Source: Frankia casuarinae
GTDB taxonomy: Bacteria > Actinomycetota > Actinomycetes > Frankiales > Frankiaceae
Assembly (NCBI RefSeq): GCF_000013345.1
Contig: NC_007777.1
Location: forward strand, 2,294,001-2,358,000
Length of the DNA stretch: 64,000 nt
Direction: 5' to 3'
The position numbers were made by a program, and so were the translations under genes. The notes beneath the pieces were generated by a model. The model had not been told where the DNA came from. It worked only from the letters and a program-made list of their open reading frames with translations, and made no database searches. Every line of letters starts with the position of its first letter. The stretch's first letter is position 1. This document shows, one piece after another, positions 46,804 through 61,693 of this stretch.

Positions 46804-47976
46804 ATGAAACTCAGCAGCGACCGCATCCTGACCACGCACACCGGCAGCCTGCCCCGACCGGCCGGGCTGGCCGAGCTGATCCGGGCCCGGGAACAGGAGA
46901 CCCTCTCGGTCGCGGACGCCGAGTACCTGCCCGAGCGGATCGCGGACGCGGTTGGCGTGGTCGTCGGCCATCAGGCGCAGGTCGGGCTGGACGTGATCAG
47001 CGATGGCGAAATGAGCAAGATCGGGTACGCCACCTACGTCAAAGAACGCCTCACCGGTTTCGACGTGGACGTTGCCGTTCCCGAGGGCGGCGGCCTGTCG
47101 ATCGCTGATCTGGACGACTACCCTGGCATGGCCGAACGTTCCCTGGCCGGCTTGGAGACCGCGACACCGACCTGTACCGGTCCGATCAGCTACACCGGCA
47201 CCGCCTTGCTCGATACCGATCTGGCCAACTTCGCAGCCGGCGTCAGCTCAATCTCGGCAGGATCGGGTCAGCCGACCGAGCGGTTCATGAATGCCGCGTC
47301 ACCTGGAGTTATCGCGCTCTATCTTCCGAACCAGTTCTATGCCAGTTTGGATGAGTACCTGTTCGCGTTGGCCGAAGGAATGAGGGCCGAGTACGAGGCG
47401 ATCACCGCAGCCGGGCTGGTCCTGCAGATCGACGCCCCGGATCTGGCGATGGGTCGGCACATCCAGTACGCGCACCTGTCCGAGCAGGGATTCCTGGACC
47501 GGCTGCGCGTGCACGTTGAGGCGATCAACCACGCGCTACGCAATATCGACCCGGCGAGGGTGCGGGTGCACCTGTGCTGGGGCAACTACCAGGGCCCGCA
47601 CCACAAGGACGTCGGCCTGGACGTCATCCTGGACACGATCATTCAGCTCAAGGCCGATGGGCTGGTATTCGAGGCCGCCAATCACCGCCACGCACATGAA
47701 TGGCAGGTGCTGGCCGACGCGAAGATTCCCGAGCAGAAGGTCCTCATCCCGGGTGTCATCGACACCTCCAGCGTCTACGTCGAACACCCCGAACTCATCG
47801 CCCAGCGCATCACCCGCTTCGCCGACATCGTCGGCCGCGAGCGCGTCATCCCCGGAACCGACTGCGGCTTCGCGTCCTTCGCCACCTTCCTCGCCGTCGA
47901 CGAGAGCCTGGCCTGGGCGAAACTCGAATCCCTCACCGCCGGCGCTCGACTGGCCAGCGATCGACTGTGGTCATGA
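46804..47976 (+). CDS. MetE-like zinc methyl/alkyl-transferase family protein
   Basis: A protein of 390 residues behind GGAGGAAC. It is the single catalytic domain of the cobalamin-independent methionine synthase family: start LTTHTGSLPRPAGL, VGLDVISDGEMSKIGYATY, and the zinc site His256 and Cys258 (VHLCWG), Glu290 and Cys354 (PGTDCGF). The family also contains epoxyalkane:coenzyme M transferases of about this size, so the thiol and the alkyl donor are uncertain. Its stop overlaps the next start (ATGA). As first gene of an operon with a PhyH/PhnZ-like pair it may process a methylated or alkyl group released there. A broken paralogue lies at 18244. Confidence 0.88.
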   Translation: MKLSSDRILTTHTGSLPRPAGLAELIRAREQETLSVADAEYLPERIADAVGVVVGHQAQVGLDVISDGEMSKIGYATYVKERLTGFDVDVAVPEGGGLSIADLDDYPGMAERSLAGLETATPTCTGPISYTGTALLDTDLANFAAGVSSISAGSGQPTERFMNAASPGVIALYLPNQFYASLDEYLFALAEGMRAEYEAITAAGLVLQIDAPDLAMGRHIQYAHLSEQGFLDRLRVHVEAINHALRNIDPARVRVHLCWGNYQGPHHKDVGLDVILDTIIQLKADGLVFEAANHRHAHEWQVLADAKIPEQKVLIPGVIDTSSVYVEHPELIAQRITRFADIVGRERVIPGTDCGFASFATFLAVDESLAWAKLESLTAGARLASDRLWS

Positions 47977-48812
47977 CCAGCACCACCCCGACCCACAGCA
48001 CGACCGAGCACGACGCGGCGCTGCCGGTGCTCGACCTGCGCGAGTTCGACCCTGGCACTGATCCCGCGGTGCGCAGCCGGTTCCTTGAGCGACTGCGCGA
48101 GACCTGCCATGACGTGGGTTTCTTCTACCTGGTGGGGCACGGCATCGGTGACACCCTGTTCCGGGAGGTCGAGGAGGTCACCCGAGCGTTCTTCGCTCTG
48201 CCCGAAGCCGATCGAATGGCGATCGCGATGACCCGGTCGCCACACTTCCGTGGCTACACCCCACTGGGTGGTGAACTCACGAACGGTCGGGCCGACCGGC
48301 GCGAGGAGATCGACCTCGGCGAGGCCACCATCAAAGCCATCCACTACCCTCCGTCCGGACCTGGCTGCGATCATCAAGGCGTTGGCACCCACCGGGACTT
48401 CGGGCTGCTCACCTTCGTCCTGCAAGACGCCGTCGGTGGACTGCAGGTGGAGCGCGACGGATGCTTCTTCGACGTCCCGCATCTGCCCGGCGCCCTGGTC
48501 GTCAATCTCGGCGAAATGCTGCAGCTCGCCACCCACGGCTACCTCAAGGCCACCGTCCACCGCGTCATCAGCCCACCCGCTGGCGTGCGGCGATTCTCGG
48601 TTATCTACTTCTTCAACCCGCGCCTGGACGCCACCCTCACTCCCATCGACCTGCCCGCCGAACTTGCCGCCCAGGCAACGGGCGGACACAGCGCTGACCC
48701 GGACAACCCCATCCTCGCTACCTACGGCGAGAACATCCTCAAGGTGCGGCTGCGTGCCCACGCCGACGTCGCGCAACTCCACCACGCAGATTTGCTCGCC
48801 GCCGAGAGCTGA
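47973..48812 (+). CDS. isopenicillin N synthase-like 2-oxoglutarate/Fe(II) dioxygenase
   Basis: A protein of 279 residues in a 4-base overlap with the MetE-like gene. The DIOX_N part has LPVLDLREFDPGTDPA, then ETCHDVGFFYLVGHGI and RAFFALPEADRMAIAM. The core has GTHRDFGLLTFVLQD (His and Asp ligands), HRVISPPAGVRRFSVIYFF (second His and the R-x-S motif). About 60 residues that usually lie between the DRRE-E-x-D-x-G motif and the L/I-H-Y-P-P motif are missing; here DRREEIDLGEATIKAIHYPP runs straight on. This makes it short for the family and could change the substrate pocket or reflect a deletion. Confidence 0.85.
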   Translation: MTSTTPTHSTTEHDAALPVLDLREFDPGTDPAVRSRFLERLRETCHDVGFFYLVGHGIGDTLFREVEEVTRAFFALPEADRMAIAMTRSPHFRGYTPLGGELTNGRADRREEIDLGEATIKAIHYPPSGPGCDHQGVGTHRDFGLLTFVLQDAVGGLQVERDGCFFDVPHLPGALVVNLGEMLQLATHGYLKATVHRVISPPAGVRRFSVIYFFNPRLDATLTPIDLPAELAAQATGGHSADPDNPILATYGENILKVRLRAHADVAQLHHADLLAAES

Positions 48813-48920
48813 CCTGATCCACCGGCACACCGCAACCCGCCTTCGTGCTGGCCCGCGCGCCCCGCGCCCCACGGCTCCCACGCGCGCCCAGTCATCCCCT
48901 GAACAGAAAGGCGATCCGCC

Positions 48921-49586
48921 ATGACCGTTGATGCCCCGCCCGCATCGGTGGCAACGCATGTACCGCTACTGACCGAGGCCGAAACCCCGCCCGACCCACC
49001 GGTCACGAACCCGCTGCGAGGCAACCCCGGCATCGTCGGCATCCCGATTACCATCGCTGGCGCGCTCGGACTCGGCTTGGTCGACGCCGGCTACGTGCCC
49101 GCCGAGGCCGCCGCCGCCGGCATCCCGACCATCCTCGCCGCAACCTCGATCGGGCTGCTGCTGGCTACCGTCTGGGCCGCCGCGCTCGGGCAAAATGCCT
49201 CGGCTAGCCTGTTCGCCGTTTTTTTCGGCTTCTACGCCAGCTACGCCGCACTCGCCCTCGGACTCGGGCACAACTGGTACGGCATCCCCGATGCCCAGAT
49301 CGTGCACACGCAAGCCATCTGGCTGATCTGCTGGCTGGTCACCATTGCCATGCTCACTCTGGTCACCATACGGCTACCTTGGAGCTTCACCCTGCTCCTC
49401 GGCCTGGTCGACGTCGCCCTCGTCCTGCTGCTCGTCGGCACCCTGGAGGCCAACACCACCTTCATCCATCTCGGCGGGTACGTGGTCTTCGCCTTCGTTG
49501 CCGTCGCCGTCTACCTGTATGTCGATCTTATGTGGAGCGAGACCGGTGGCCGTGGACTTCCTCTCGGTAAGCCTCTCGTATCTTGA
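48921..49586 (+). CDS. GPR1/FUN34/YaaH-type transporter
   Basis: A protein of 221 residues. After a polar N-terminus the first helix follows the family N-P signature (NPLRGNPGIVGIPITIAGA). Six membrane helices are predicted: GIPITIAGALGLGLVDAGYV, AAATSIGLLLATVWAAALG, ASLFAVFFGFYASYAALALG, IWLICWLVTIAMLTLVTIR, LLLGLVDVALVLLLVGTL and IHLGGYVVFAFVAVAVYLYV. The IHLGGY-type motif in the last helix is typical. Family members move acetate, succinate or ammonium-like solutes. Here it may import or export the substrate or the small carboxylate product of the neighbouring oxygenases. Confidence 0.78.
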   Translation: MTVDAPPASVATHVPLLTEAETPPDPPVTNPLRGNPGIVGIPITIAGALGLGLVDAGYVPAEAAAAGIPTILAATSIGLLLATVWAAALGQNASASLFAVFFGFYASYAALALGLGHNWYGIPDAQIVHTQAIWLICWLVTIAMLTLVTIRLPWSFTLLLGLVDVALVLLLVGTLEANTTFIHLGGYVVFAFVAVAVYLYVDLMWSETGGRGLPLGKPLVS

Positions 49587-49679
49587 CTCGGTCGCTGTAA
49601 CAAAGTTGCATCACAGCGTCTCTTCTTGATACAAGAGTTACACAGACGTTCTGGTTGACCGGCTCCTCGGAGGCTCACG

Positions 49680-50459
49680 TTGCTGACCGATTCCCTTGAC
49701 CTCACGACCTGGCAGGCCAGTGGCGTTCTTCTCATGGACGGCTTCCTTGGCCCGGAGCGCCTGCGGGAGGTGCGACGCTGGGTCGATGAGATCGAGGCCC
49801 TGCCGGGCCGCGAGGACGGTCTGCTGCAGTACGACGAGACCACCGGGGACGGATTCTCGGTGCGGTGCCGCACCGAGAACATCGTGCCCTTCCATGACGG
49901 CATGCGTGCCTTGCTCACCCGGGGCACGCTGCTCGACATTGCCAGCATGTTGCTCGGCGAGCCCGCCGTCCTCTACAAAGAAAAGATCAACTATAAGGAA
50001 CCCGGCGGCGCCGGGTTCGCCCCACACCAGGACGCGCCCGCCTACCCCTTTGTCCGGTCCACCATCACCTGCATGATCGCTATCGACGATTCCACCACCG
50101 ACAATGGCTGCCTGGACGTCGTCGAAGGCATGCACCACGAGCCGCTCCCCACCGACGATGTCGGCTGCATCCCCGCCAGTCTCGCCGAGACCCTCCTCTG
50201 GAAACCCGTCCCCGTCCGCGCTGGGTCGTTGCTCTGGTTCAACTGGTACGTCCCGCACCGCTCCGGAGTCAACACCTCACCACATCGTCGCCGGGCCATC
50301 TACCTCACCTACAACGCAGCCTCCGACGGTGACCACCGCCACCACTACTACCAGGAAAAGCAGCACCGCCTAGCCGCCGGCACCGACCGAATCAGCCTCA
50401 TCGGCCACTTCACCGGCGACAGCCACGTCAGCGCCCGGGGCGCCGAGGAATCTGCATGA
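49680..50459 (+). CDS. PhyH-type 2-oxoglutarate/Fe(II) dioxygenase, PhnY/TmpA-like
   Basis: A protein of 259 residues from TTG 49680 behind CGGAGG. Metal ligands are His116 and Asp118 (GFAPHQDAPAYPF) and His193 (YVPHRSGVN); Arg204 would bind 2-oxoglutarate. The motif KINYKEPGGAGFAPHQD is characteristic of the PhyH group that hydroxylates the alpha carbon of organophosphonates. Its stop overlaps the start of the HD-oxygenase gene (ATGA at 50456-50459), the normal arrangement for phnY-phnZ and tmpA-tmpB pairs. The substrate (2-aminoethylphosphonate, its N-methyl derivatives or another phosphonate) cannot be told from sequence. Confidence 0.82.
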   Translation: MLTDSLDLTTWQASGVLLMDGFLGPERLREVRRWVDEIEALPGREDGLLQYDETTGDGFSVRCRTENIVPFHDGMRALLTRGTLLDIASMLLGEPAVLYKEKINYKEPGGAGFAPHQDAPAYPFVRSTITCMIAIDDSTTDNGCLDVVEGMHHEPLPTDDVGCIPASLAETLLWKPVPVRAGSLLWFNWYVPHRSGVNTSPHRRRAIYLTYNAASDGDHRHHYYQEKQHRLAAGTDRISLIGHFTGDSHVSARGAEESA

Positions 50460-51058
50460 ATACCGACCGGCTCCTCCACGGCACCTTCACTGGCGCGGAC
50501 GAGTTCTGCGATGAACTGTTCGCCTACCTCACCGCCGTTGGCCAAAGTCAATACGACGAAACCGTCACCCAACTCGAACACGCCCGGCAAACCGCCGCCC
50601 TCGCCGAAGCCGACGGCTATGACCAGGCCGCGCAGGTCGCCGCGCTGCTGCACGATATCGGCCATCTCCTCCTCGACGAACACGACGCGCACCACAATTT
50701 CCTCGCCGAAGACCTCCATCACGAAATCGTCGGAGCACGCTACCTGACCCGATGGTTCGGCCCCGATATCGGCACTCCGGTCGCGCTGCACGTCAAAGCC
50801 AAGCGCTATCTCGTGGCCACCGACCCCGCCTACGCCAACAGCCTGTCCGTAGCCTCCACCCGAAGCCTACGCGTCCAAGGCGGCCCGATGACTGGCAGAG
50901 AAGTCGATGCCTTCCTTTGCCTGCCACATGCCGACCTCGCCATCGCGTTGCGTCGATGGGACGACAACGCCAAGCGAGCCGGCGTCGCGGTACCGGAACT
51001 TGACCATTGGCGTCCGGCTGTCTGCCGGCTGGTCAATGAGGCTTCCGCGGTGGTTTGA
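50456..51058 (+). CDS. HD-domain mixed-valent diiron oxygenase, PhnZ/TmpB-like
   Basis: A protein of 200 residues. The HD-domain ligands are visible: His42 (QLEHARQT), His66-Asp67 (ALLHDIGHLL), His89 (LHHEIVGARYL), His112 (ALHVKAKRYL) and an Asp at 169 or 170 (RRWDDNAK). Tyr33 and Glu35, just before the first helix, occupy the positions used in this group to guard the iron site. The block SVASTRSLRVQGGPMTGREV is the PhnZ-type signature. Such enzymes cleave the C-P bond of alpha-hydroxy phosphonates with O2, releasing phosphate. It follows its PhyH partner with a 4-base overlap and ends the operon. Confidence 0.85.
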   Translation: MNTDRLLHGTFTGADEFCDELFAYLTAVGQSQYDETVTQLEHARQTAALAEADGYDQAAQVAALLHDIGHLLLDEHDAHHNFLAEDLHHEIVGARYLTRWFGPDIGTPVALHVKAKRYLVATDPAYANSLSVASTRSLRVQGGPMTGREVDAFLCLPHADLAIALRRWDDNAKRAGVAVPELDHWRPAVCRLVNEASAVV

Positions 51059-51472: not shown

Positions 51473-52486
51473 TTACGGGGCGAGTTCGTCGGCACGCCCA
51501 CTCGCTCGGCGCGGGCGGCCCTGGTAGGAGGCGCGGTAGGCGGACGGCGTGTTGGCGGCGTCGCGGGCGAGGTGGATCCGCAGGTTGGCGGCGGTCCCCA
51601 GTCCGCAACGGGCGGCGATCCGATCCACCGGCAGGTCGGTCACCTCGAGCAGCAGCCGCGCCTCGGCGATCCGGTGGGCGAGCAGCCACTGCCTGGGCGT
51701 GACGCCGTACTCGGCGATGAAGCGCCGGGCGAACGTGCGCGTCGCGTAGCCAGCGTGGCCGGCGAGATCAGCGACGGACAGTGGCTCGGCGAGCCGTTCC
51801 AGCGCCCAGTCGCAGGTCGCGGCCAGCCTGCCAGGACCGCCAGAGCCGGGCTTTGGACCGGGCACCGGGCGGCGTAACAGCTGGGCTTGGCCGCCTGCGC
51901 GATGGGGCGCCACCACCAGCCGGCGGGCGACGCGGGTGGCGACGGCACTGCCGAGGTCGCGCCGCAGTATGTGCAGACACAGGTCGATCCCCGCGCACAC
52001 TCCGGCGCTGGTGAGGATCCGCTCCCCGTCGACGTAGAGAACGTTCGGGTCCACCTGCACCGTCGGATGGCGGGCGGCGAGGTCGCCCGCGTCCTCCCAG
52101 TGGGTGGTGGCCCGCTGACCGTCGAGTAGCCCGGCGGCAGCGAGGGCGAACGCTCCGGTGCACACCGACATCAGTCTGACGCCGCGGTCGGCAGCCGCGC
52201 GCAGCGCGTCGAGCACCCCTGGTGCGGGTGTGACCAGTGGGGCGTACCCGGGGACGACGACGGTGTCAGCGGCATCCAGCGCGGCGAGCCCGTGCGCCAC
52301 CTCCAAGGCGAAGCCGGTGGTGGTGGGCAGCGAGCCAGGCTGCTCCGTGCACAGCGTGAACGTGTAATGCTCGGCCAGGTCCAGGTGGCCGAACACCTGG
52401 GCCGGGATCGCGAGGTCCATCGCGACGGTGGCCGGGACCGCGAGGGCCACCACGGCGTGGCGAGTGGCCGTTTCCTTATGCAGCAC
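51473..52486 (-). CDS. GlxA-type regulator (DJ-1/PfpI plus AraC HTH)
   Basis: A protein of 337 residues from the GTG at 52486. The DJ-1/PfpI-like domain covers about 10-180: VVALAVPATVAMDLAIPAQV, then LMSVCTGAFALAAAGLLDG and ATTHWEDAGDLAARHP. The C-terminal AraC domain reads LSVADLAGHAGYATRTFARR and ATGVTPRQWLL-type sequence (EYGVTPRQWLLAHRIAEARL), with the second helix pair IAARCGLGTAANLRIHLARD. Such proteins activate nearby genes in response to small metabolites. It is divergent from the MFS gene at 52537 with only about 50 bases between starts, so it very probably controls it. Confidence 0.9.
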   Translation of the reverse strand: MLHKETATRHAVVALAVPATVAMDLAIPAQVFGHLDLAEHYTFTLCTEQPGSLPTTTGFALEVAHGLAALDAADTVVVPGYAPLVTPAPGVLDALRAAADRGVRLMSVCTGAFALAAAGLLDGQRATTHWEDAGDLAARHPTVQVDPNVLYVDGERILTSAGVCAGIDLCLHILRRDLGSAVATRVARRLVVAPHRAGGQAQLLRRPVPGPKPGSGGPGRLAATCDWALERLAEPLSVADLAGHAGYATRTFARRFIAEYGVTPRQWLLAHRIAEARLLLEVTDLPVDRIAARCGLGTAANLRIHLARDAANTPSAYRASYQGRPRRASGRADELAP

Positions 52487-52536
52487 GGCAGAACAGCCTA
52501 TTCCGCTGCGCACTCGGCGCCCGGCACTCTGGCCTC

Positions 52537-53889
52537 GTGTCCAGCAAGCCGCTGCCCCGCCGGGCCGACCCGAAGGATGCGGACCCGATGACGACTCGAG
52601 ACGCCGCCGACGCACCTGAAGTCGCGTCCCCTGCTGGTCGTAGCCGGCGGAACACGGCGCTGATTTTCGCCGCGACGCTCGCGTTCACGCTGTCGCTGGC
52701 CGGGTCGGCGTTGAAGAACACGATTCAAGTGGACTTCTCGCCGATCGCAGTGGACCTTGGTGTCAGCCGCGGGACGTTCGCCTGGTCGACGACGGTCTTC
52801 GCTGTGGTCATCGCGGTGGCGAGCCCGGTCGTCGGGGTGCTGGCCGATCGGTTCGGCGGCGCGGCCGTGCTGGTCAGCGGAACGGTGCTCGCCGGTGCCG
52901 CCTTCCTGATCTGCGCGGCGGCGCCGGGGGTGTCGCTGTTCGCGTCCGTCTACGGCGTGCTCGGCGCCTTCGCCTTCACGATGCTCTCGTACGTTCCATT
53001 GGGAAAGCTTGCCAGCGAGCTGTTCACCGCCCGCGGGGAGGGCCTGGCGTACGCGGTCATGACGAACGGCCCGGCTGTCGGGTTCATCGTGCTGGTGCCG
53101 CTGTGGGTGTGGCTCGGCGCGTTCGCGTCCTGGCGGGCCGTCTTCGTCGTCGCCGGTCTGTCGATGCTCCTCGTGCTGACCCCACTTGCGCTGCTGCTGT
53201 ATCGGCTGTCCGGCCAGGACGAGCCGGCGCCTACGGCGACGCCGGGCACACCCGGGACCGCGGACGACGCGCGGCTCGGCTTCGGGGACCGGTTGCGGCT
53301 GGCAGCCGCCAACCCTGTGTTCCTGGCGCTGACCGTCGCGTTCACCGGCTGTGGGATCACGATGGCGTTTGTCGACGTTCACCTGGTCACCGATCTGCAC
53401 GAACATGGCATGAGCCCGGGTGTCGTCAGTGGCACCCTCGCCATGCTGGGCGTCTTCGAGATCCTTGGCTCACTGGCCGCCGGCCGAAGGTGTGACCGGG
53501 GCCGGGTCCGGCAGACCCTGCTTGTCGGTTACGCGCTGCGCGGCGGGGCGATGGTGCTCGTCGCCTTCGACGCGACCGTAACCGCCTCGCTGGCCTTCGG
53601 GGTCATCTTCGGGGCGAGCTATCTGGCGACGGTGGTCGCGACCACGCTGTGGATTGGCCGGGTGCTGCCCGAGGGCGCCCGGGCCACCGGCCTCGGTCTG
53701 CTGTGGACGCTGCACAGCATCGGCGCCGCTCTCTCCAGCCAGCTGGGCGCGCTGGTCGCCGACTCGTACAACTCCTATACGCAGGTCGCGATGGGCGAGG
53801 CGCTGCTGGTCGGGGTGTCGTTCCTGCTGATCGCCCGGCTGCCCGCGCCACGCCCGGCGGCCGTCCCCGCCGGCGCTTCCCGGCAATGA
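52537..53889 (+). CDS. MFS transporter, 12-helix
   Basis: A protein of 450 residues with a polar N-terminus of 35 residues. About twelve membrane segments are visible, beginning ALIFAATLAFTLSLAGSAL, VVIAVASPVVGVLADRFGG (the GxLADRFG loop 2-3 motif) and VLVSGTVLAGAAFLICAAA. A cytosolic loop (GQDEPAPTATPGTPG) separates the halves. It resembles the monocarboxylate/oxalate-formate-type or drug-exporter MFS groups. With a GlxA regulator on one side and a four-gene amino-acid operon on the other, it may export the product of that operon. Confidence 0.85.
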   Translation: MSSKPLPRRADPKDADPMTTRDAADAPEVASPAGRSRRNTALIFAATLAFTLSLAGSALKNTIQVDFSPIAVDLGVSRGTFAWSTTVFAVVIAVASPVVGVLADRFGGAAVLVSGTVLAGAAFLICAAAPGVSLFASVYGVLGAFAFTMLSYVPLGKLASELFTARGEGLAYAVMTNGPAVGFIVLVPLWVWLGAFASWRAVFVVAGLSMLLVLTPLALLLYRLSGQDEPAPTATPGTPGTADDARLGFGDRLRLAAANPVFLALTVAFTGCGITMAFVDVHLVTDLHEHGMSPGVVSGTLAMLGVFEILGSLAAGRRCDRGRVRQTLLVGYALRGGAMVLVAFDATVTASLAFGVIFGASYLATVVATTLWIGRVLPEGARATGLGLLWTLHSIGAALSSQLGALVADSYNSYTQVAMGEALLVGVSFLLIARLPAPRPAAVPAGASRQ

Positions 53890-54169
53890 GCGGTCTGCGT
53901 GGCACCCTGTCGAGCCCTGGAAAAACCGGGATCACACGCCGTGGCGTTTCGGGCCGGGCCGCCGACTTATGGTCTCCAGCAACACCCGCTTCTCCGGCGT
54001 CAGCATGATCGGGAATCGGTGCCCGGCGAGCCGGGCAAGCACCGCGGCCAGCTTCGTCACGGCGTTGTCCGGGGCGCCGGCGGACCAGGTAGCCGGCACC
54101 GAGGGCTCCGCGCACCGAGTACCTGCTCATCGAACTGGCCTGGCGCCTGCGGGGCTGTCGGCTGCGGGT

Positions 54170-55399
54170 TCATCGGGCGCGGGCCCCGGCAGGCCTGGTC
54201 GCTGCGAACGCCCGGGCCAGATCGGCGACGATGTCCTCGACGTCCTCCAGGCCGACCGATAGGCGCAGCAGGCCGTCGGTGACGCCGGCGGAGTCGCGCT
54301 GTGCCGGCGTGAGCCGGCCGTGGGTGGTGCTTGCCGGATGGGTGATCATCGACTTGGTGTCCCCGATGTTTGTCGTGTTCGACACGAGCTCAAGCCGGTC
54401 GACAAACGACCAGCTGGCCTGCTGGCCGCCGTACAGCTCGAAGCTGATCACTCCGCCGTGCCCGGACTGTTGGGCGGCTACCAGCTCCCGCTGCGGGTGA
54501 TCCGCGCTGCCGGTGTAGTGCACCGCCCGTACGTCCGGTTGGTCGGCTAGCCAGGCAGCCACCACCGCCGTGTTGGCGTCGTGCGCCCGCATCCGCACCG
54601 GCAGCGTCTCCAGGCTCTTCAGGAAGATCCACGCGTTGAACGGGCTGAGGCTCGGGCCCGCGGTGCGCAGCACACCGTGCAGCTCGGAGATCAGGCCCGC
54701 GCGGCCGGCGACAACGCCGCCGCCGCAGCGGCCCTGACCGTCGATGTACTTGCCGGCGGAGTGCAGAACGAGGTCTGCGCCAAACACGATCGGTTGCTGG
54801 AACACCGGGGTGCACAGGGTGTTGTCGACCAGCAGCAGCGCGCCGGCGGCATGTGCGAGCTCTGCGAGGTACCTGATGTCGGCCACGGCCATTACCGGGT
54901 TCGTGGGGCTCTCAACGACGAGCATCCTGGTCTGCGCACGCATTGCGCGCGCCCAGGCGGCCGGGTCGGTCACCGGAACGACGGTCGTCATGACGCCGAA
55001 CCGGTCCAGATAGTGAGCATAGAGCCGGGTCGTGGTGCCGAAGACACCCTCCGCAAGCAGGACATGGTCCCCGCCGCGCAGCAGCCCGAGCGACACCGCC
55101 AAGAATGCGGCCATCCCGGACGCGGTCGCTACGGCGGACTCGGCACCCTCCAGCCGCGCGACGCGCTCCTCGAACGCGCGCACCGTCGGGTTCGTGAACC
55201 GGACGTAGACGTTGCCGGGGCGCCGCTGCGCGAACTTCTCCGCCGCGTCGTGCGAGTCGTCGAACAGGTAGCTCGACGTGAGTACCAGCGCCTCGCTGTG
55301 CTGGTCGTCAACGGACTGGCGATGGCCGGCACGCACCGCCTCCGTCGCCAGTCCGCGGCGGGTGCCGGAGGCCGTACGGTTGGAGGACGGAGGCGTCAT
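54170..55399 (-). CDS. Cys/Met-metabolism PLP enzyme, MetZ-like
   Basis: A protein of 409 residues. The fold-type I PLP site is complete: YVRFTNPTVRAFEERVARLE, ATASGMAAFLAVSLGLL, LVVESPTNPVM, LLVDNTLCTPVFQQP and HSAGKYIDGQG with the PLP Lys217. The family performs gamma-replacement or gamma-elimination on O-acyl-homoserine or related substrates. The start overlaps the stop of the HDO gene (ATGA at 55396-55399), so the two are translationally coupled. In a normal methionine pathway this would be O-succinylhomoserine sulfhydrylase; the coupled diiron oxidase makes a specialised role more likely. Confidence 0.88.
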   Translation of the reverse strand: MTPPSSNRTASGTRRGLATEAVRAGHRQSVDDQHSEALVLTSSYLFDDSHDAAEKFAQRRPGNVYVRFTNPTVRAFEERVARLEGAESAVATASGMAAFLAVSLGLLRGGDHVLLAEGVFGTTTRLYAHYLDRFGVMTTVVPVTDPAAWARAMRAQTRMLVVESPTNPVMAVADIRYLAELAHAAGALLLVDNTLCTPVFQQPIVFGADLVLHSAGKYIDGQGRCGGGVVAGRAGLISELHGVLRTAGPSLSPFNAWIFLKSLETLPVRMRAHDANTAVVAAWLADQPDVRAVHYTGSADHPQRELVAAQQSGHGGVISFELYGGQQASWSFVDRLELVSNTTNIGDTKSMITHPASTTHGRLTPAQRDSAGVTDGLLRLSVGLEDVEDIVADLARAFAATRPAGARAR

Positions 55400-56118
55400 G
55401 CGGGCAGCAGCCGTCCGGCCAGGTATTCCTGGTAGATGCCCTCGTACATGCCGTAGAACAGCTCGCAGGTATGCGCTACGGCGTAGAGCGCCTCCTGCTG
55501 CATCTGCTCCGTCGTGCACAGGTCTGCGACGAGGTCGAGGCCCTGCTGAGTGTGGGTGATGTCCTCGACCTGGTGCACCGAGAAGAACAGCAGGTCCCTC
55601 GGCTCGAGCCCGTACACCCGACCGAACAGGATGTCGCGGCTCTCGCTGCCTAGCTTCTCCAGGTTCTGCCCCTCGCTCGCGATGGTGACCGCGGCGGCAC
55701 CGACGTGATAGCGATCCGGATCCTTCACCGCCGCGAGCCGGTAGTCGATCAGCTCCTGGGTCGTCGGCAGCGCGACGGCGGCATCCCGGGTCTCGTCGTC
55801 GATCCCGATCGCTAGCAGGAAGTCCTGCATCAGCTTGACGTGGTTCCGCGTCTTCGAGATCCGCCCGGTCTCCTCCTCGTAGAGGTTGTGCAGCAGGCGC
55901 CGCTTGTGCCGGGGGAGCGGGCAGTAGAAGAACAGGTGCTCGACGTAGGTAAGGAAGTGCTTGGTGAGCTGGTAGCCCTGTAGCGCTACCTGCTGGAGGA
56001 AACGCGGCTGAGGGTTGTCCGCGTCCAGTAGAAGCCCGAACACCGGGTGGGCGATGGTGAGGTGCTGGTGCAGGGTCTCCTCCAGGGACGCCCTGAACCT
56101 GTCCCGCGGGAGCGTCAT
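55396..56118 (-). CDS. haem-oxygenase-like diiron oxidase (HDO) family protein
   Basis: A protein of 240 residues, all helical, in a 4-base overlap with both neighbours. It has the ligand pattern of HDO/TenA-like iron enzymes: Glu82 or Glu83 and His93 (YEEETGRISKTRNHV), Glu149 (TIASEGQNLEKLG), and His182, Asp186, His189 (SVHQVEDITHTQQG). The N-terminal helix LQGYQLTKHFLTYVEHLFF is typical of the 'iron-containing redox enzyme' group. Relatives include BesC, which cleaves a chlorinated lysine, UndA and SznF. Its substrate is probably an amino acid given the PLP partner. Confirmation needs structural comparison. Confidence 0.85.
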   Translation of the reverse strand: MTLPRDRFRASLEETLHQHLTIAHPVFGLLLDADNPQPRFLQQVALQGYQLTKHFLTYVEHLFFYCPLPRHKRRLLHNLYEEETGRISKTRNHVKLMQDFLLAIGIDDETRDAAVALPTTQELIDYRLAAVKDPDRYHVGAAAVTIASEGQNLEKLGSESRDILFGRVYGLEPRDLLFFSVHQVEDITHTQQGLDLVADLCTTEQMQQEALYAVAHTCELFYGMYEGIYQEYLAGRLLPA

Positions 56119-56759
56119 CGGCTCGTCCTCTCTGCGATGGCGGCTTGTGGGGTGGTGTGGCGGCGAGTGGGATCGGCACGACGGGCCAGCCGGTCGGCCG
56201 TGACGGCCTGTAGCTCGGACACGGCGTGAGTCATGTAAAGGCCGCGGTGGCTGATGCCCCGCACTCGGCTGTAGTCGTCCAGCACGCCGTAGGTGGTGAA
56301 CCCGAAGCCGCTCCAGACCCGGTGGGCTGGGGAGCCTTCGCGGACGTCGATGAGAACGCGCTCCACCCCGACGTCGGCGAGTCGCTCGCAGACGGCGAAC
56401 ACGAGCTCGATCACCGCACCGGTGCGACGGATCCGGGGACGCAGGTATGCCTTGCTGACCTCGCTGAGATGCCGGCAGTTCGGCATCGAGTTCAGGGCGA
56501 CGACGCACATCGCGCAGACGCCCTCGTCGTCCTGGCCGAGCAGGACGAGCGCTTCGCCTGTGCCGACCCGACGGGCGAGGTCCTCCGCGAAGCCCACGCC
56601 CTGGGCCGGCGTAACCGGCTCGGTGAAGCCGAGGATGCCGTCATCGATCACGCTCGCGGCCAGCATCGAGGCGAGGTCCGTACTGTACGGACGAACATCC
56701 GTTGGCCAGGACCAGGTCATCCTGGTGCCGTCCGGCGGCTGGTCGGGTAGGTGGGTCAT
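56115..56759 (-). CDS. GNAT-family acetyltransferase
   Basis: A protein of 214 residues from the ATG at 56759, behind GGGAGGATCA. It has a GNAT core: ALVLLGQDDEGVCAMCVVAL, HLSEVSKAYLRPRIRRTGAV (acetyl-CoA loop), ELVFAVCERLADVGVERVLI, and a C-terminal SGFGFTTYGVLDDYSRV. The Q/R-x-x-G-x-G/A loop is altered to RPRIRRTGAV. It overlaps the upstream MetA-like gene by about 119 bases, an unusually long same-strand overlap, and its stop overlaps the HDO start. It may acetylate the pathway amino acid, either as a biosynthetic step or for self-protection. Confidence 0.8.
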   Translation of the reverse strand: MTHLPDQPPDGTRMTWSWPTDVRPYSTDLASMLAASVIDDGILGFTEPVTPAQGVGFAEDLARRVGTGEALVLLGQDDEGVCAMCVVALNSMPNCRHLSEVSKAYLRPRIRRTGAVIELVFAVCERLADVGVERVLIDVREGSPAHRVWSGFGFTTYGVLDDYSRVRGISHRGLYMTHAVSELQAVTADRLARRADPTRRHTTPQAAIAERTSR

Positions 56760-57681
56760 TGATCCTCCCGGTGGATCCGTCGGCGACCCTGCGGATCCAG
56801 TTCGCGGTCATGGCGGTCGCCTCCGCGGTCCACCGCCGGGCGACGTCAGGCAGCGGCCCGACAGTGGGCAGCTGTGTGGCCAGCGTGGGAGAGCGCTGGC
56901 TGCGGGCGCGCCGGGCGAACGCGGCGAGCCGCCGGCTTGCGGTATCGGCCAGGTAGCCCTCCGGGATCGGCGGGTACGGCGCGTCAGGGTCCGTGAGGAA
57001 GACCCGGACGTCGCGGCGGTACTCCCGCAGCAGCATGTCGGGCAGGTACTCCGGGTGACCTTGGACGAAGACCTGACGGACCCCGTCCTGACTGGTCGCT
57101 ACCGCCCAGTCAGAGCCACCGGTAAGCAGCTCCAGGCGCACGCCGCAGGCGACGAGTTCGTCACGGTCCACAGTGTTCCATCGGGAATGCGGCATGGTGA
57201 CGACGTCGGGCAGCCCGACGGTGAGCGGGCCGCGTCGTGCGACGGTCTGATGGTCGAGCACGCCGACCCTCTTGTGTGCCAGTCGGCGGCGCTGCACGCC
57301 GCACATCTGGTGGAGGGCTAAATGCGCAGACAGACAGGAGAACACAGTGAAGAAATTCCGTCTCCGGCTGAGGTCGAGAATCCGCTCGATCACCGGATAG
57401 CCCGGGTCCTTCTCTGGGTGGGAATTCTGTGGCTGTGCGCCGGTCACCACCAGAGCATCGAATGATGCTATTCGCTGCCAATCGCTTCGTGACCCCGGAA
57501 GATGGGGATGGCTGGTCGTCGGGTCGAGGTCCACCACATCGACGTGGACTGCCACTCTGGCGCTGTTCGCCGCGTTTCTTATCAGCCGGTCGAACTGCTG
57601 CCCTCCTGTTCCTCGGCCGGTGGCCGCCATGAGGTCAACGACTCCGACACGGAGGGATCCATGAGGTGGCTTCTCCGGCAT
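56641..57681 (-). CDS. homoserine O-acyltransferase-like protein, MetA type
   Basis: A protein of 346 residues behind GGGAAGGAAAG. It has the glutamine-amidotransferase-like fold of MetA: VVTGAQPQNSHPEKD, FTVFSCLSAHLALHQMCG with catalytic Cys116, VTMPHSRWNTVDRDEL, and VFVQGHPEYLPDMLLREYR with His209 and Glu211. These match the MetA Cys, His and Glu triad. Residues SCLSAHL replace the usual SCWGAQA, so substrate preference may differ. It heads the operon and would supply an O-acylhomoserine-like substrate to the MetZ-like enzyme. Its last 40 residues overlap the GNAT gene and may not be essential. Confidence 0.85.
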   Translation of the reverse strand: MPEKPPHGSLRVGVVDLMAATGRGTGGQQFDRLIRNAANSARVAVHVDVVDLDPTTSHPHLPGSRSDWQRIASFDALVVTGAQPQNSHPEKDPGYPVIERILDLSRRRNFFTVFSCLSAHLALHQMCGVQRRRLAHKRVGVLDHQTVARRGPLTVGLPDVVTMPHSRWNTVDRDELVACGVRLELLTGGSDWAVATSQDGVRQVFVQGHPEYLPDMLLREYRRDVRVFLTDPDAPYPPIPEGYLADTASRRLAAFARRARSQRSPTLATQLPTVGPLPDVARRWTAEATAMTANWIRRVADGSTGRINDPPTRPAAGRHQDDLVLANGCSSVQYGPRLDAGRERDR

Positions 57682-58573: not shown

Positions 58574-59250
58574 ATGATGTTCATGGAGCCTGAGTCGCAG
58601 GAGGCTCCGGCCGGGTCACCGCAGGCGCGGGACCCGGCGCCGCGTCCGTCGCGGCGGGTGTTCAGCACGGCGTACAAGCTGCGGATCGTCGCGGAGTACG
58701 AGAACGCCCCGCACGGCGAGAAGGGTGCGATCCTGCGCCGGGAGGGTTTGTTCTCCTCGCATGTGGTGGAGCGGACCCGGGCACGTGACGCGGGGGCGCT
58801 GGGAAGAGCAGGCGTCCCGGCCCGCGCTCCGGGGAAGAATCCGGGGAAGTCGGCGGAACAGATCGAGTTGGAGCGTCTGCGCCGCGAGAACGAACGGTTG
58901 AAAGCGAAACTTGCGACGGCAGAAACCGCGCTGGCTTTTATGGGAAAAGCACGCGCTCTCTCTTGCGGCAGGTCTCCGAGAGAGCGGACTCCGAGTACCG
59001 GATCGTCCGGGCGGCGGGGCAGACCAGGGAACGCCGTGCGCAGGCGACCCACCCGCCGCGGGTCCGCCCCGAGCTGTCCGCGACCGGACCGTCACAGGTC
59101 TGGTCGCGGGATATCACCGCGTTGAAAGGACCCGAGAAAGGCGTCTGGTACCGGCTGTACGTCATCATCGATATCTACTCCCGGTATGTGACCGGCTGGC
59201 TTGTCGCTGCCGCCGAGGACGCGGTGGTCGCGAAGGATTTCCTTCTACCC
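58574..59250 (+). pseudogene. IS3-type element remnant: OrfA followed by a fused, truncated OrfB
   Basis: OrfA reads SRRVFSTAYKLRIVAEYENA, GLFSSHVVERTRARDAGAL and ERLRRENERLKAKLATAETA, nearly complete. After FMGKARAL the frame changes and OrfB resumes only at about LLRQVSERADSEYRIVRAAG, missing its N-terminal helix-turn-helix region. The integrase core starts QVWSRDITALKG (first Asp) and VIIDIYSRYVTGW, then stops at AAEDAVVAKDF near 59245. The second Asp and the Glu are lost. It differs from the IS3-type copy at 5424. The deletion end lies about 25 bases from the MFS gene stop. Confidence 0.75.
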
Positions 59251-59275
59251 CGTCCCCGACGGCTGGCCCCGGCGG

Positions 59276-60796
59276 TTACTGTCCCGCGGCCGGCACCCCC
59301 GCCGGCTGCGTCGGGTCGTCGGTCTCGGCTGGGTGGGCGTCGGCGGTCCGTGCGCTGTCGGCGGCCCGCGACTGGCCGGGCGGGCGCAGGACGAACAGGG
59401 CGACGAGGACGGCCGCGGCGACCAGGGCCGCGCTCACCGCGTAGGCGAGGTGGAACCCGCCGGTGAGGGCGGTGGTGGTGCTCCTGCCGTGGTCGAGCAG
59501 CGAGTCGGTGCGGGAGGCGGCAAGGGTGGCCAGGATCGCGGTGCCGAGCGCGGCGCCGATCTGCTGGGTGGTGTTGGCCACCCCGGATGCGACGCCGGCC
59601 TCGGCGGGGTCGGAGACCGCCATCGCCTGGCCGATCAGTGCGGGCATCGCCGCGCCGAAACCGATACCCAGCAGGACGAACACCGGGGCGATGTCGCTCG
59701 CGTAGCTGCCGTCAGCCGGTAGCCGGGCCAACAGTAGGAGCGCCGCGGCGACCAGCAGCAGCCCGACGACGATCACCGGCCTGGGGCCGAACCGGGTGTT
59801 CAGCGGCGACGCGAGGCCCAGCGAGACGGCCGCGATGGTTAGCGGGGCCGGCAGGAACGCCAGCCCGGTGCGCAGCGCGTTGTAGCCGAGCACGTCCTGC
59901 AGGTACAGGGCGGTGCAGAACTGGTAGCCGAACAGGCCGGCCACCATCAGGGTCAGGATGATGTTCGCTCCCCCGACCGCGCGGGAGCGGAAGATGCGCA
60001 GCGGCAGCAGTGGCTTGGCCGCTCTGGCCTGGCGGCCCACGAAGGCGGCGAGCAGGAGCAGCGAGGCGGCGAGCGACCCCAGCGTCCCGCCGTCGCTCCA
60101 GCCGTCCGCCCCGCCCCGGACGACGGTGTAGACGCCGAGCATCAGCCCGGCGGTCACCAGCCCGGCGCCGAGAACGTCCGCGCTCTCGCGCAGCCCGAGC
60201 CCGGCGATCGGGGGCAGCACCCACAGGGCGAGCACCACCGCGAGGACACCCAGCGGCACGTTGACGTAGAAGACCCACGGCCAGCTGAGACTCTTGGTCA
60301 GCACGCCGCCGAGGATGAGCCCGATCGATGAGCCGGCCGCGGCGACGAAGGCGTAGCAGGCCAGTGCCTTGGCCCGCTCCCGGCTGTCAGGGAAGATCGT
60401 GACTATCATGCCGAGTGCCACCGCGGAGGCCAGCGCCCCCCCGGCGCCCTGCAGGAAGCGGAACGTGATCAGGAGGCCGCCGGTGTTGGCCAGGCCGCAG
60501 GCCAGCGAGGCTGCCGTGAACAGGCCGAGCCCCCCGATGAAGACGGGCCGGCCGCCCAGCAGGTCACCCAGCCGCCCGGACAGCAGCAGCAGGCCAGCAA
60601 AGGCGATCAGGTATCCGTTCACAACCCAGGCCAGGTTCGCCTGGGAGAAGCCGAGGTCCTGCTGGATGGTCGGCAGCGCGACCGTAACGATCGAGCTGTC
60701 CAGGATGGCCATCAGGTTGCTGGTGCAGAGCACCCCGAGGGCGAGCCAGCGGGACGGGAGCGCCGGGGGCGGGGCCGGGGGAGTCGAGTCGGTCAA
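59276..60796 (-). CDS. MFS transporter, DHA2 (EmrB/QacA) 14-helix type
   Basis: A protein of 506 residues from TTG 60796, with GGAAGA upstream. The 14-helix drug:H+ antiporter features are present: SNLMAILDSSIVTVALPTIQ (motif D1, with the helix-1 Asp), SGRLGDLLGGRPVFIGGL (loop 2-3 motif A), RFLQGAGGALASAVALGMI and a motif C region SSIGLILGGVLTKSLSWPW. Its Pro/Ala tail is disordered. A HxlR regulator is divergent, 156 bases away, and probably represses it. Likely a multidrug or natural-product exporter. Confidence 0.9.
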   Translation of the reverse strand: MTDSTPPAPPPALPSRWLALGVLCTSNLMAILDSSIVTVALPTIQQDLGFSQANLAWVVNGYLIAFAGLLLLSGRLGDLLGGRPVFIGGLGLFTAASLACGLANTGGLLITFRFLQGAGGALASAVALGMIVTIFPDSRERAKALACYAFVAAAGSSIGLILGGVLTKSLSWPWVFYVNVPLGVLAVVLALWVLPPIAGLGLRESADVLGAGLVTAGLMLGVYTVVRGGADGWSDGGTLGSLAASLLLLAAFVGRQARAAKPLLPLRIFRSRAVGGANIILTLMVAGLFGYQFCTALYLQDVLGYNALRTGLAFLPAPLTIAAVSLGLASPLNTRFGPRPVIVVGLLLVAAALLLLARLPADGSYASDIAPVFVLLGIGFGAAMPALIGQAMAVSDPAEAGVASGVANTTQQIGAALGTAILATLAASRTDSLLDHGRSTTTALTGGFHLAYAVSAALVAAAVLVALFVLRPPGQSRAADSARTADAHPAETDDPTQPAGVPAAGQ

Positions 60797-60952
60797 CAGT
60801 CTTCCTTGACGTCGAGGAGGCCGGACGGGCCGCGGCGGCGGGCCGGTCGCGGCCGCCAGCCAGGTGCGGCGGTTCCAGCCGCCGCATGGGGCATGCCTTG
60901 TTACGGAAGCCATCATGTGTGACTGTGGGAGTGGCCGGAAGGAGGCACTTTC

Positions 60953-61357
60953 ATGTTTCAGGGGAACAGCGATGTGATCGACTCCCCCGGCCACGAGGCC
61001 GAGGCCTGCACCGTCTTGGAGGTGCTGAACCGGATCAGTGGCAAGTGGGCCATCGGCATCCTGCTGCGGATCAGCGACGGACCGGTCCGGTTCACCGAGC
61101 TGCAGCGGTCGATCAGCGGCATCAGCCGGCGGATGCTCACCCTCACACTGCGTAACCTGGAACGTGATGGGCTGCTGACGCGGGTCGTCTACCCCACGGT
61201 GCCGCCGAAGGTCGAGTACCAGGCCACCGATATGGCCCGGGAGCTGTATGCCACGCTGCGGACGCTCACATCGTGGGCCGAACGGCACCGCGACGACATC
61301 GCCGTGGCCCGCGCGGCCTACGACCGCAACCACGGCCCCCAGGGTGGGGTCGAGTAG
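60953..61357 (+). CDS. HxlR-family transcriptional regulator
   Basis: A protein of 134 residues behind GGAAGGAGG. The winged helix is typical: TVLEVLNRISGKWAIGILLR, RFTELQRSISGISRRMLTLT and LRNLERDGLLTRVVYPTVPP, then the VEYQATDMARELYATLRTL helix. The usual N-terminal Cys is in EAEACTVLEVL, a possible redox sensor. It is divergent from the MFS exporter and probably controls it in response to quinones or electrophiles, as an ABM-type monooxygenase also lies nearby. Confidence 0.9.
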   Translation: MFQGNSDVIDSPGHEAEACTVLEVLNRISGKWAIGILLRISDGPVRFTELQRSISGISRRMLTLTLRNLERDGLLTRVVYPTVPPKVEYQATDMARELYATLRTLTSWAERHRDDIAVARAAYDRNHGPQGGVE

Positions 61358-61693
61358 AGCACCCTGGAGGCCATGATGCGAAGATGCATCCGAGTATGAC
61401 GCTGGGTGACTGTCGCTGGGCTGGAGCGATCCCGTCCGGATGCCAGTCCTGGAACAGGGCAGCCCGTACACCATGCGCCAGTGCCCGTACTGGGCGGGAA
61501 CGTCCCGCTACGGTGCCCCGGTCCGCGTCCGCCACCGAATTCCGTCGATCAACTGCCGGCGTGTCCACGTCGGCGGCTGACCCGGTCTCTTCCTCATGCC
61601 GATACGCCGGACCACGGGAATAGCGGCGTCTGGTTGGATGTCACGGAGGTTTCCGACCGGGGCTCCGCCTGTCGTCGCCGGCGGCCCGACCGA
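61358..61693. other. intergenic region, no supported gene
   Basis: About 336 bases between the convergent HxlR and ABM genes. Frames here look like random translation. No strong terminator hairpin was seen by eye. Confidence 0.35.

What the first reader, a model, noticed from the sequence alone, without database searches (positions are those of the whole stretch)
51473..57681. HDO / MetZ-like / GNAT / MetA-like operon: candidate pathway for a modified amino acid
Seen: four minus-strand genes in order MetA-like, GNAT, haem-oxygenase-like diiron protein, MetZ-like PLP enzyme, all overlapping. A GlxA regulator and MFS gene lie at the end. Known: HDO enzymes such as BesC act on amino acids together with PLP enzymes of the Cys/Met family, and MetA/MetZ enzymes activate and replace the gamma position of homoserine. 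Inference: the operon makes an unsaturated or otherwise altered homoserine-derived amino acid, with GNAT for modification or self-protection and the MFS for export. No halogenase is present, so it would differ from the BesA-E route.
Basis: partly seen in the sequence, partly recalled or inferred. Interest (0 to 1): 0.85.

Follow-up and report, generated by a model that had tools for sequence, protein, structure and literature searches.

The report
Mobile gene cassette for unusual amino acid
A small set of genes, shared by distantly related bacteria and apparently moved between them, looks like a kit for making, tolerating and exporting an unusual amino acid whose identity is not known.

Summary
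In detail: four overlapping minus-strand genes (MetA-like, GNAT, haem-oxygenase-fold dimetal oxidase = HDO, MetZ-like) at 54170-57681, with a divergent GlxA-type regulator/MFS pair at 51473-53889. Of 19 loci with an orthologous HDO (56-83% identity to the window's), MFS is found in 19, GNAT in 18, MetZ in 18, a GlxA-type regulator in 16, MetA in 3. It is rare and scattered over two phyla. It is not the host's methionine route: acetyl-type MetX, MetY and cystathionine gamma-synthase lie elsewhere. Cassette MetZ forms its own clade beside housekeeping MetZ. MetA is carried where the host's MetX is acetyl-type and absent where it is succinyl-type (11 of 11 proteobacterial carriers), so the MetZ substrate is probably O-succinylhomoserine. 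The HDO keeps six metal-ligand positions but lacks the sacrificial Tyr/Lys of p-aminobenzoate synthases. The GNAT resembles tabtoxin resistance protein, though its acetyl-CoA loop is degenerate. One relative has an SbnA-like beta-replacement enzyme and racemase instead of MetZ; another a SyrB2-like gene. Best reading: activation, PLP replacement and HDO oxidation make an exported non-protein amino acid. Product and order of steps are unproven.

The parts
56641..57681 (-). MetA-like homoserine O-acyltransferase (HTS family), first gene; Cys (FSCLSAH) and His-x-Glu (QGHPEY) positions kept; probably makes O-succinylhomoserine (inferred from the host MetX pattern)
   Evidence: PF04204 E 1.4e-38; NF003776 222 bits, below cut-off 358; Cys and His-x-Glu align with solved MetA 7cbe (their catalytic role is recalled); kept in L003 and L004
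56115..56759 (-). GNAT of tabtoxin-resistance type, candidate self-protection acetyltransferase; overlaps MetA by 119 bp
   Evidence: 1GHE E 7.9e-6 alone, 1.2e-13 as a profile; TTR residues Glu92, Lys95, Asp130 align with E/D100, K103, D138; acetyl-CoA loop degenerate
55396..56118 (-). [quoted passage not shown]
   Evidence: PF14518 E 3.1e-24; E82, H93, E149, H182, D186, H189 invariant in the 12 orthologues aligned
54170..55399 (-). MetZ-like PLP enzyme (O-succinylhomoserine gamma-replacement type), clade distinct from housekeeping MetZ; lysine K217 in SAGK
   Evidence: PF01053 E 1.2e-121; NF006003 543 bits; tree; clade-specific residues
52537..53889 (+). MFS transporter, found beside the HDO in 19 of 19 loci; export is inferred
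   Evidence: PF07690 E 8.9e-30
51473..52615 (-). GlxA/FtrA-type regulator (DJ-1/PfpI domain plus AraC-type HTH), longest ORF; true start probably nearer the gene
   Evidence: PF01965 and PF12833; 58% identical in L013, where it also forms a divergent pair with the MFS gene next to MetZ (pair inverted); about 30% in proteobacterial loci

Best explanation
The genes are a horizontally moving cassette for one small non-proteinogenic amino acid. Proposed steps: (1) homoserine becomes O-succinylhomoserine, by the cassette MetA where the host makes only the acetyl ester, or by the host's succinyl-type MetX in proteobacteria; (2) the specialised MetZ replaces the succinyl group at the gamma carbon with a nucleophile, probably not just sulfide; (3) the HDO oxidises the coupled amino acid with O2 (desaturation, N-oxygenation and C-C cleavage all have HDO precedents); (4) the MFS exports the product; (5) the tabtoxin-resistance-like GNAT acetylates it for self-protection; (6) a GlxA-type regulator controls the unit. 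Shown by sequence: gene content, conservation, scattered distribution, ligand and pocket residues, separate methionine genes, the MetA/MetX pattern. Inferred: every reaction, the nucleophile, the order of steps 2 and 3, the direction of transport.
For: 19 loci: MFS 19, GNAT 18, MetZ 18, GlxA-type 16, MetA 3. Scattered: 2 of 348, 3 of 399 and 3 of 390 genomes in three group samples, seeds included, and none of 12 other genomes of the window's genus at orthologue level. One Pseudomonas genome carries two diverged copies. Cassette MetZ (17 rows) and housekeeping MetZ (7 rows) separate in the tree and share no residue at ten positions. MetX is succinyl-type by NCBI's cut-off in 11 of 11 proteobacterial carriers, which lack MetA (0 of 11), and acetyl-type in the window genome and in Kibdelosporangium, which have the cassette MetA. 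GNAT keeps the three TTR residues. L123, which lacks MetZ and MetA, has an SbnA-like beta-replacement enzyme and a racemase beside GNAT-HDO-MFS.
Against: The window MetZ passes NCBI's cut-offs for the ordinary O-succinylhomoserine sulfhydrylase (543 over 522; 513.7 over 510), so homocysteine synthesis is not excluded. The MetA is below all three MetA cut-offs. The glycine of the GNAT acetyl-CoA loop is missing in 5 of 13 members and its last small residue in 13 of 13. MFS hits are weak and include importers. Regulators of proteobacterial loci are only about 30% identical to the window's, and none was found in L003, L004 or L123. The HDO's best family is CADD/PabS, not a natural-product HDO. 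No structure could be predicted; no product is known.
Confidence: 0.58

Rival explanations
1. The HDO works first and makes the nucleophile (for example an N-oxygenated amine), which MetZ then couples to O-succinylhomoserine: a C4 analogue of D-cycloserine synthesis (O-acyltransferase, CysK-like coupling, racemase; recalled).
For: In L123 the HDO is kept (79 of 92 positions invariant in MetZ-type HDOs) while the coupling enzyme is of beta- instead of gamma-replacement type and a racemase is present, as expected if the HDO supplies a common nucleophile.
Against: No arginase-like or ATP-grasp gene in the window unit. In fluopsin synthesis the HDO acts after coupling (PMC11363339, passages). Some invariant residues change in L123, such as Q183 beside ligand H182. 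The variant rests on one locus.
Confidence: 0.2
2. Sulfur scavenging: the MFS imports an organosulfur compound, the HDO releases sulfide or a thiol, and MetZ captures it on O-succinylhomoserine to make homocysteine or methionine; the GNAT detoxifies.
For: MetZ passes the cut-offs for the ordinary sulfhydrylase; the MetA/MetX pattern fits this too; AraC/GlxA regulators often control catabolism (recalled); a MetE-like gene lies about 3.5 kb beyond the regulator gene (46804-47976).
Against: The parts of the HDO review that I read (PMC13108848, part 1 and passages) name no thiol-releasing HDO. Seven of eight proteobacterial carriers have another MetZ. L123 lacks MetZ. The MetE-like protein has no match in the 13 loci; a weak one (22%) lies beside a distant HDO in L103.
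Confidence: 0.12
3. MetA-MetZ is a spare methionine pathway brought by transfer; HDO and GNAT have unrelated roles.
For: MetA and MetZ catalyse two consecutive steps and MetZ passes the equivalog cut-offs.
Against: The host has acetyl-type MetX, MetY and cystathionine gamma-synthase; HDO, GNAT, MFS and MetZ occur together in two phyla; MetA is usually absent (3 of 19).
Confidence: 0.07
4. The HDO is a p-aminobenzoate synthase of the CADD/PabS type and the neighbours are incidental.
For: Best solved matches are 4-aminobenzoate synthases (E 1.5e-19 and 2.6e-9); best NCBIfam model fol_rel_CADD (76 bits).
Against: That model's cut-off is 200. Sacrificial Tyr27 aligns with Phe27 (invariant in the 12 aligned) and Lys152 with Arg161 (read by eye). 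MetZ, GNAT and MFS are conserved around it.
Confidence: 0.03

Closest known systems
Bes pathway (BesA-E; HDO BesC; PLP enzyme BesB, recalled)
   Same: An HDO and a Cys/Met-family PLP enzyme in one amino-acid pathway; the Kibdelosporangium relative also has a SyrB2-like gene
   Different: No halogenase, ligase or 2OG hydroxylase found in the window operon; BesC is only E 0.3 to this HDO profile
Rhizobitoxine pathway (RtxA, RtxC; PMC3222319, passages)
   Same: An O-acetylhomoserine sulfhydrylase-like domain makes dihydrorhizobitoxine, then an oxidation (desaturase RtxC)
   Different: No aminotransferase domain and no RtxC-type desaturase here; an HDO would take that role (inference)
D-cycloserine pathway (recalled; one search found no paper)
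   Same: Acyltransferase plus PLP replacement enzyme; a racemase in the L123 variant
   Different: Homoserine-type rather than serine-type enzymes in the window; no heme N-hydroxylase, arginase-like or ATP-grasp gene in the unit
Fluopsin C pathway (FlcA-E; PMC11363339, passages)
   Same: A coupled amino acid (S-succinylcysteine) is oxidised by an HDO
   Different: FlcB joins cysteine and fumarate; two HDOs; different gene set
CADD/PabS p-aminobenzoate synthases
   Same: Sequence similarity and the six metal-ligand positions
   Different: Sacrificial Tyr and Lys positions are Phe and Arg; different neighbours
Tabtoxin resistance protein TTR (1GHE; PMC3202874, passages)
   Same: GNAT with equivalents of Glu92, Lys95 and Asp130
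   Different: Remote similarity; conserved N-C-R-H motif; degenerate acetyl-CoA loop

Membership tests
HDO (haem-oxygenase-like dimetal oxidase) | 3H/3C metal ligands (PMC13108848) | tested here: met
   E82, H93, E149, H182, D186, H189 invariant in the 12 orthologues aligned and kept in L123. Five align with CADD ligands (E81, H88, H174, D178, H181; CADD numbers recalled, read by eye); E149 falls one residue off E142 in that alignment.
HDO (haem-oxygenase-like dimetal oxidase) | bound dimetal cofactor and O2-dependent oxidation | not testable with these tools
CADD/PabS p-aminobenzoate synthase | sacrificial Tyr27 and amine-donor Lys152 (PMC11965152, passages) | tested here: not met
   Phe27 and Arg161 at these positions, both invariant in the 12 aligned; Phe27 is Val in L123. 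76 bits against cut-off 200.
O-succinylhomoserine sulfhydrylase MetZ | score over the NCBI equivalog cut-off; lysine and YxRxxNP motif | tested here: met
   Window protein 543 over 522 and 513.7 over 510; K217, Y65, R67, N70, P71 invariant in 12. The L009 orthologue is below both cut-offs (504.2, 475.3).
O-succinylhomoserine sulfhydrylase MetZ | groups inside housekeeping MetZ | tested here: not met
   Two sister groups: 17 cassette rows (fork support 91/85) and 7 housekeeping rows (100/99) in 36 rows.
MetA homoserine O-acyltransferase | HTS domain, Cys and His-x-Glu | tested here: met
   PF04204 133 bits over 27; residues align with 7cbe.
MetA homoserine O-acyltransferase | succinyl or acetyl subtype | tested here: inconclusive
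   Below all three MetA cut-offs. Succinyl is inferred from host MetX types.
TTR-type GNAT | pocket residues Glu92, Lys95, Asp130 | tested here: met
   E/D100, K103 and D138 in 13 of 13 members.
TTR-type GNAT | RxxGxG/A acetyl-CoA loop (recalled) | tested here: not met
   R111 in 13 of 13; G114 in 8 of 13; the last position is never Gly or Ala (0 of 13).
Bes pathway | halogenase, HDO, PLP enzyme, ligase and 2OG hydroxylase together (recalled) | tested here: not met
   The window operon has only HDO and PLP enzyme.
Rhizobitoxine pathway | bifunctional RtxA and desaturase RtxC | tested here: not met
   No such domains among the operon genes scanned.

The most novel reading that the evidence does not exclude
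GNAT-HDO-MFS is a module that makes and exports a family of amino-acid antimetabolites whose backbone is set by a swappable PLP enzyme: MetZ-type for a C4 product from O-succinylhomoserine, SbnA-like plus racemase for a C3, possibly D-configured product, and with a SyrB2-like halogenase in Kibdelosporangium. The HDO would do a reaction not yet described for this clade.
Probability: 0.35. Interest if true: 0.82.

Novelty: new variant of a known kind. Interest (0 to 1): 0.62.

Why it matters
HDOs catalyse unusual oxidations, and only about a dozen had been functionally validated by 2026 (PMC13108848). This is a compact, scattered unit with an HDO clade of its own, a duplicated and perhaps redirected methionine enzyme, and a likely self-resistance gene. 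It would be a short path to a new bioactive amino acid and a new HDO reaction, testable with four purified proteins.

Tried and rejected
Folate (PabS) role: disfavoured by the replaced Tyr and Lys. Sole methionine route: rejected on acetyl-type MetX, MetY and cystathionine gamma-synthase elsewhere. Chance adjacency: rejected on MetZ in 18 of 19 loci. Canavanine use: the passages read of PMC10018355 describe another gene set. FVG/gvg vinylglycine cluster: the passages read of PMC8064604 name other markers. PMC7744662 (passages) was not relevant. Plasmid collection: one weak hit (27.6%). Distant HDOs of the phylum sample (20-31% identity) show no MetZ, GNAT or MFS match at E 1e-6 in their short flanks; L103 and L104, with 12-14 kb, show none at 1e-5, but L103 has a weak MetE-like match. 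Ten paper searches of an open-access library gave, among the papers listed (some lists were cut), no title or abstract start describing this gene set; this does not show that it is unpublished. PMC13185094 was read in its first part only.

Limits and dropped rows: presence and absence refer to the flanks read (5-10 kb each side in most, less at contig ends). L014 has the same HDO as L009, so 18 loci are independent. L013 is a MAG contig with a truncated HDO. Left out: L013 and L014 from the HDO and GNAT alignments and from the counts; L006 and L014; L014 and 12 duplicate copies from the tree. In the HDO tree L123 lies among MetZ-type HDOs at support 88/91, below the level starred there, and some outgroup branches are very long. 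The three first-draft points mended after checking: the degenerate GNAT loop is wider than two members, the identities of distant HDOs reach 31%, and the MetX subtype test was added, which moved confidence from 0.55 to 0.58 and the spare-methionine rival from 0.1 to 0.07.
Full report
WHAT IS THERE. The window lies in a 5.43-Mb single-contig genome. On the minus strand a MetA-like gene (56641-57681), a GNAT (56115-56759), an HDO (55396-56118) and a MetZ-like gene (54170-55399) follow each other, with a 119-bp overlap and two 4-bp ATGA overlaps. A GlxA/FtrA-type regulator (51473-52615 at most, minus) and an MFS gene (52537-53889, plus) form a divergent pair next to them.

IT IS A CONSERVED UNIT. 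A genome scan with the HDO gave 13 loci at 61-83% identity: Kibdelosporangium, Streptomyces, a Pseudonocardiales MAG, two Iodobacter, four Pseudomonas, Mitsuaria, Cupriavidus, Azohydromonas, Alcaligenes. In these 13, MetZ is beside the HDO in 13, MFS in 13, GNAT in 12 (not in the MAG, whose HDO is truncated), a GlxA-type regulator in 11 (not in L003, L004), MetA in 2 (L003, L004). Four more loci, from a Pseudomonas family sample and a Burkholderiales sample, all have the regulator, GNAT, HDO, MFS and MetZ. One more (L123) has GNAT-HDO-MFS without MetZ, MetA or regulator in the 19.9 kb read. With the window this makes 19 loci: MFS 19, GNAT 18, MetZ 18, GlxA-type 16, MetA 3. Identity of the HDO to the window's is 56-83% (L013 66% over 185 residues). 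MetA occurs in 3 of 5 actinobacterial and 0 of 14 proteobacterial loci. The 14 proteobacterial loci have the order GNAT-HDO-MFS-MetZ and an oppositely oriented regulator. The HDO of L014 is identical to that of L009, so 18 loci are independent.

IT IS SCATTERED. Orthologues are found in 2 of 348 genomes of a Pseudomonas family sample, 3 of 399 of a Burkholderiales sample and 3 of 390 of the Kibdelosporangium family, in each case with the seed counted. In one search six further genomes match only at E 5e-23 to 6e-21 against 6e-129 or better for orthologues, a clear gap. In the window's phylum sample 45 of 396 genomes have any match, but only the window's reaches orthologue level (next best E 1.3e-14). 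Among 97 relatives only the window's genome and one of 12 others of its genus match, the latter at 25%. One Pseudomonas indoloxydans genome has two diverged copies (HDO 74% identical). Transfer is the natural reading. A transposase remnant with an integrase core lies about 1.3 kb upstream of MetA (58963-59466).

IT IS NOT THE METHIONINE ROUTE. Elsewhere the genome has an O-acetylhomoserine sulfhydrylase (837 bits over 703) beside an acetyl-type MetX (488 over 475), and a cystathionine gamma-synthase (645 over 513); the cassette MetA is its only PF04204 match. Seven of eight proteobacterial carriers searched have another MetZ; the Alcaligenes genome shows only the cassette MetZ at E 1e-60. In a 36-row tree the 17 cassette MetZ (fork support 91/85) and the 7 housekeeping MetZ (100/99) are sister groups. 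The two groups (16 against 7 rows) share no residue at ten positions, among them Gly (Ala in L004) for Thr before the lysine, Ala/Val for Phe/Tyr at 39 and Met for Thr at 351; at some of the ten the cassette residue is that of more distant family members.

WHY METZ PROBABLY USES O-SUCCINYLHOMOSERINE. Of 14 carrier genomes searched, 12 have MetX at E 1e-60, none over the cut-off of the general acetyl model TIGR01392. Scored against NCBI's finer models, MetX is succinyl-type in 11 of 11 proteobacterial carriers (665-703 bits, cut-off 560), and these have no MetA (0 of 11). It is acetyl-type in the window genome and in Kibdelosporangium (516 over 475), which carry the cassette MetA. The Streptomyces genome has no MetX at that threshold, the cassette MetA and a second PF04204 match; the MAG shows neither; the L123 genome was not searched. 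So MetA travels where O-succinylhomoserine would otherwise be lacking. This is a pattern, not an assay, and the MetA itself is below the succinyl model's cut-off.

THE HDO. Six metal-ligand positions are invariant in the 12 orthologues aligned and kept in L123. The nearest solved structures are p-aminobenzoate synthases, but the sacrificial Tyr27 and Lys152 of CADD (PMC11965152, passages) align with Phe27 and Arg161 (read by eye). BesC appears only at E 0.3.

THE GNAT. The best solved match is tabtoxin resistance protein (E 1.2e-13 as a profile; the next, at E 3.6e-4, is another acetyltransferase). TTR's Glu92, Lys95 and Asp130, proposed to help dock the toxin (PMC3202874, passage), align with E/D100, K103 and D138 in 13 of 13 members. 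Against acetyl transfer, the RxxGxG/A loop (recalled) has its glycine in 8 of 13 and never its last small residue. Self-protection is therefore plausible, not established.

VARIANTS THAT BEAR ON FUNCTION. Its HDO keeps 79 of 92 positions invariant in 16 MetZ-type HDOs, against 52 of 143 other positions identical to the window. So the replacement enzyme may change from gamma (C4) to beta (C3) type while the HDO stays. (b) L003, Kibdelosporangium: 20 bp upstream of MetA is a SyrB2/CytC3-like protein (E 7e-22) with Ser where SyrB2 and CytC3 have Ala (DWHQS, DWHQA), so the carboxylate of hydroxylases (recalled) is absent; NRPS genes lie beyond the MFS gene. It is below the chlorinating-enzyme cut-off (129.6 against 226.3), so halogenation is unproven. 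(c) L004, Streptomyces: a PvcA/DIT1-like protein, an unknown protein and an aminotransferase directly precede the HDO on the same strand.

HOW IT MOST LIKELY WORKS. Activation of homoserine, PLP gamma-replacement, HDO oxidation, export, GNAT protection. The order coupling-then-HDO has a precedent in fluopsin C (PMC11363339, passages) and a parallel in rhizobitoxine (PMC3222319, passages: a sulfhydrylase-like domain, then a desaturase). The order HDO-then-coupling resembles D-cycloserine (recalled; one search found no paper). I hold the general reading at 0.58 and assign no product.

NOVELTY. The parts are of known kinds; the combination was not seen in ten searches of an open-access library (listed under Tried and rejected). 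I file it as a new variant of a known kind, HDO-containing amino-acid pathways. It is not a member of the Bes, rhizobitoxine, fluopsin or PabS systems.

Noticed in passing
window 46804-51058 (+): MetE-like protein, 2OG oxygenase, GPR1/YaaH-family protein, PhyH protein (methylphosphonate hydroxylase-like, 246 bits, cut-off 500) and an HD-domain oxygenase over the Phn-HD cut-off (245 over 214.6): a candidate oxidative phosphonate-degradation operon.
   Followed up: partly
window 58574-59466: Transposase remnant; its integrase core (PF00665) is at 58963-59466, about 1.3 kb upstream of the MetA gene.
   Followed up: partly
window 59276-61474 and 60953-61357: A second MFS transporter on the minus strand, and a small plus-strand ORF that looks like a HxlR-type regulator (by eye, no call).
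   Followed up: no
L002 (own genome C1:3880032-3880514): A second PF14518 match (53.6 bits) in an 892-aa open frame, far from the operon.
   Followed up: no
L003:5651-6571: SyrB2-like halogenase-type protein with HxS at the halide site, 20 bp upstream of MetA-GNAT-HDO-MetZ.
   Followed up: yes
L004:3637-7905: PvcA/DIT1-like protein, an unknown 482-aa protein and a PF12897 aminotransferase on the same strand directly before the HDO.
   Followed up: partly
L123:7255-11970: Variant with SbnA-like PLP enzyme and amino-acid racemase and no MetZ.
   Followed up: yes
L098 and L099: Two diverged copies of the five-gene unit in one Pseudomonas indoloxydans genome; the copy in L009/L099 lies just after a threonine synthase gene and a gene that looks like homoserine dehydrogenase (by eye).
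   Followed up: partly
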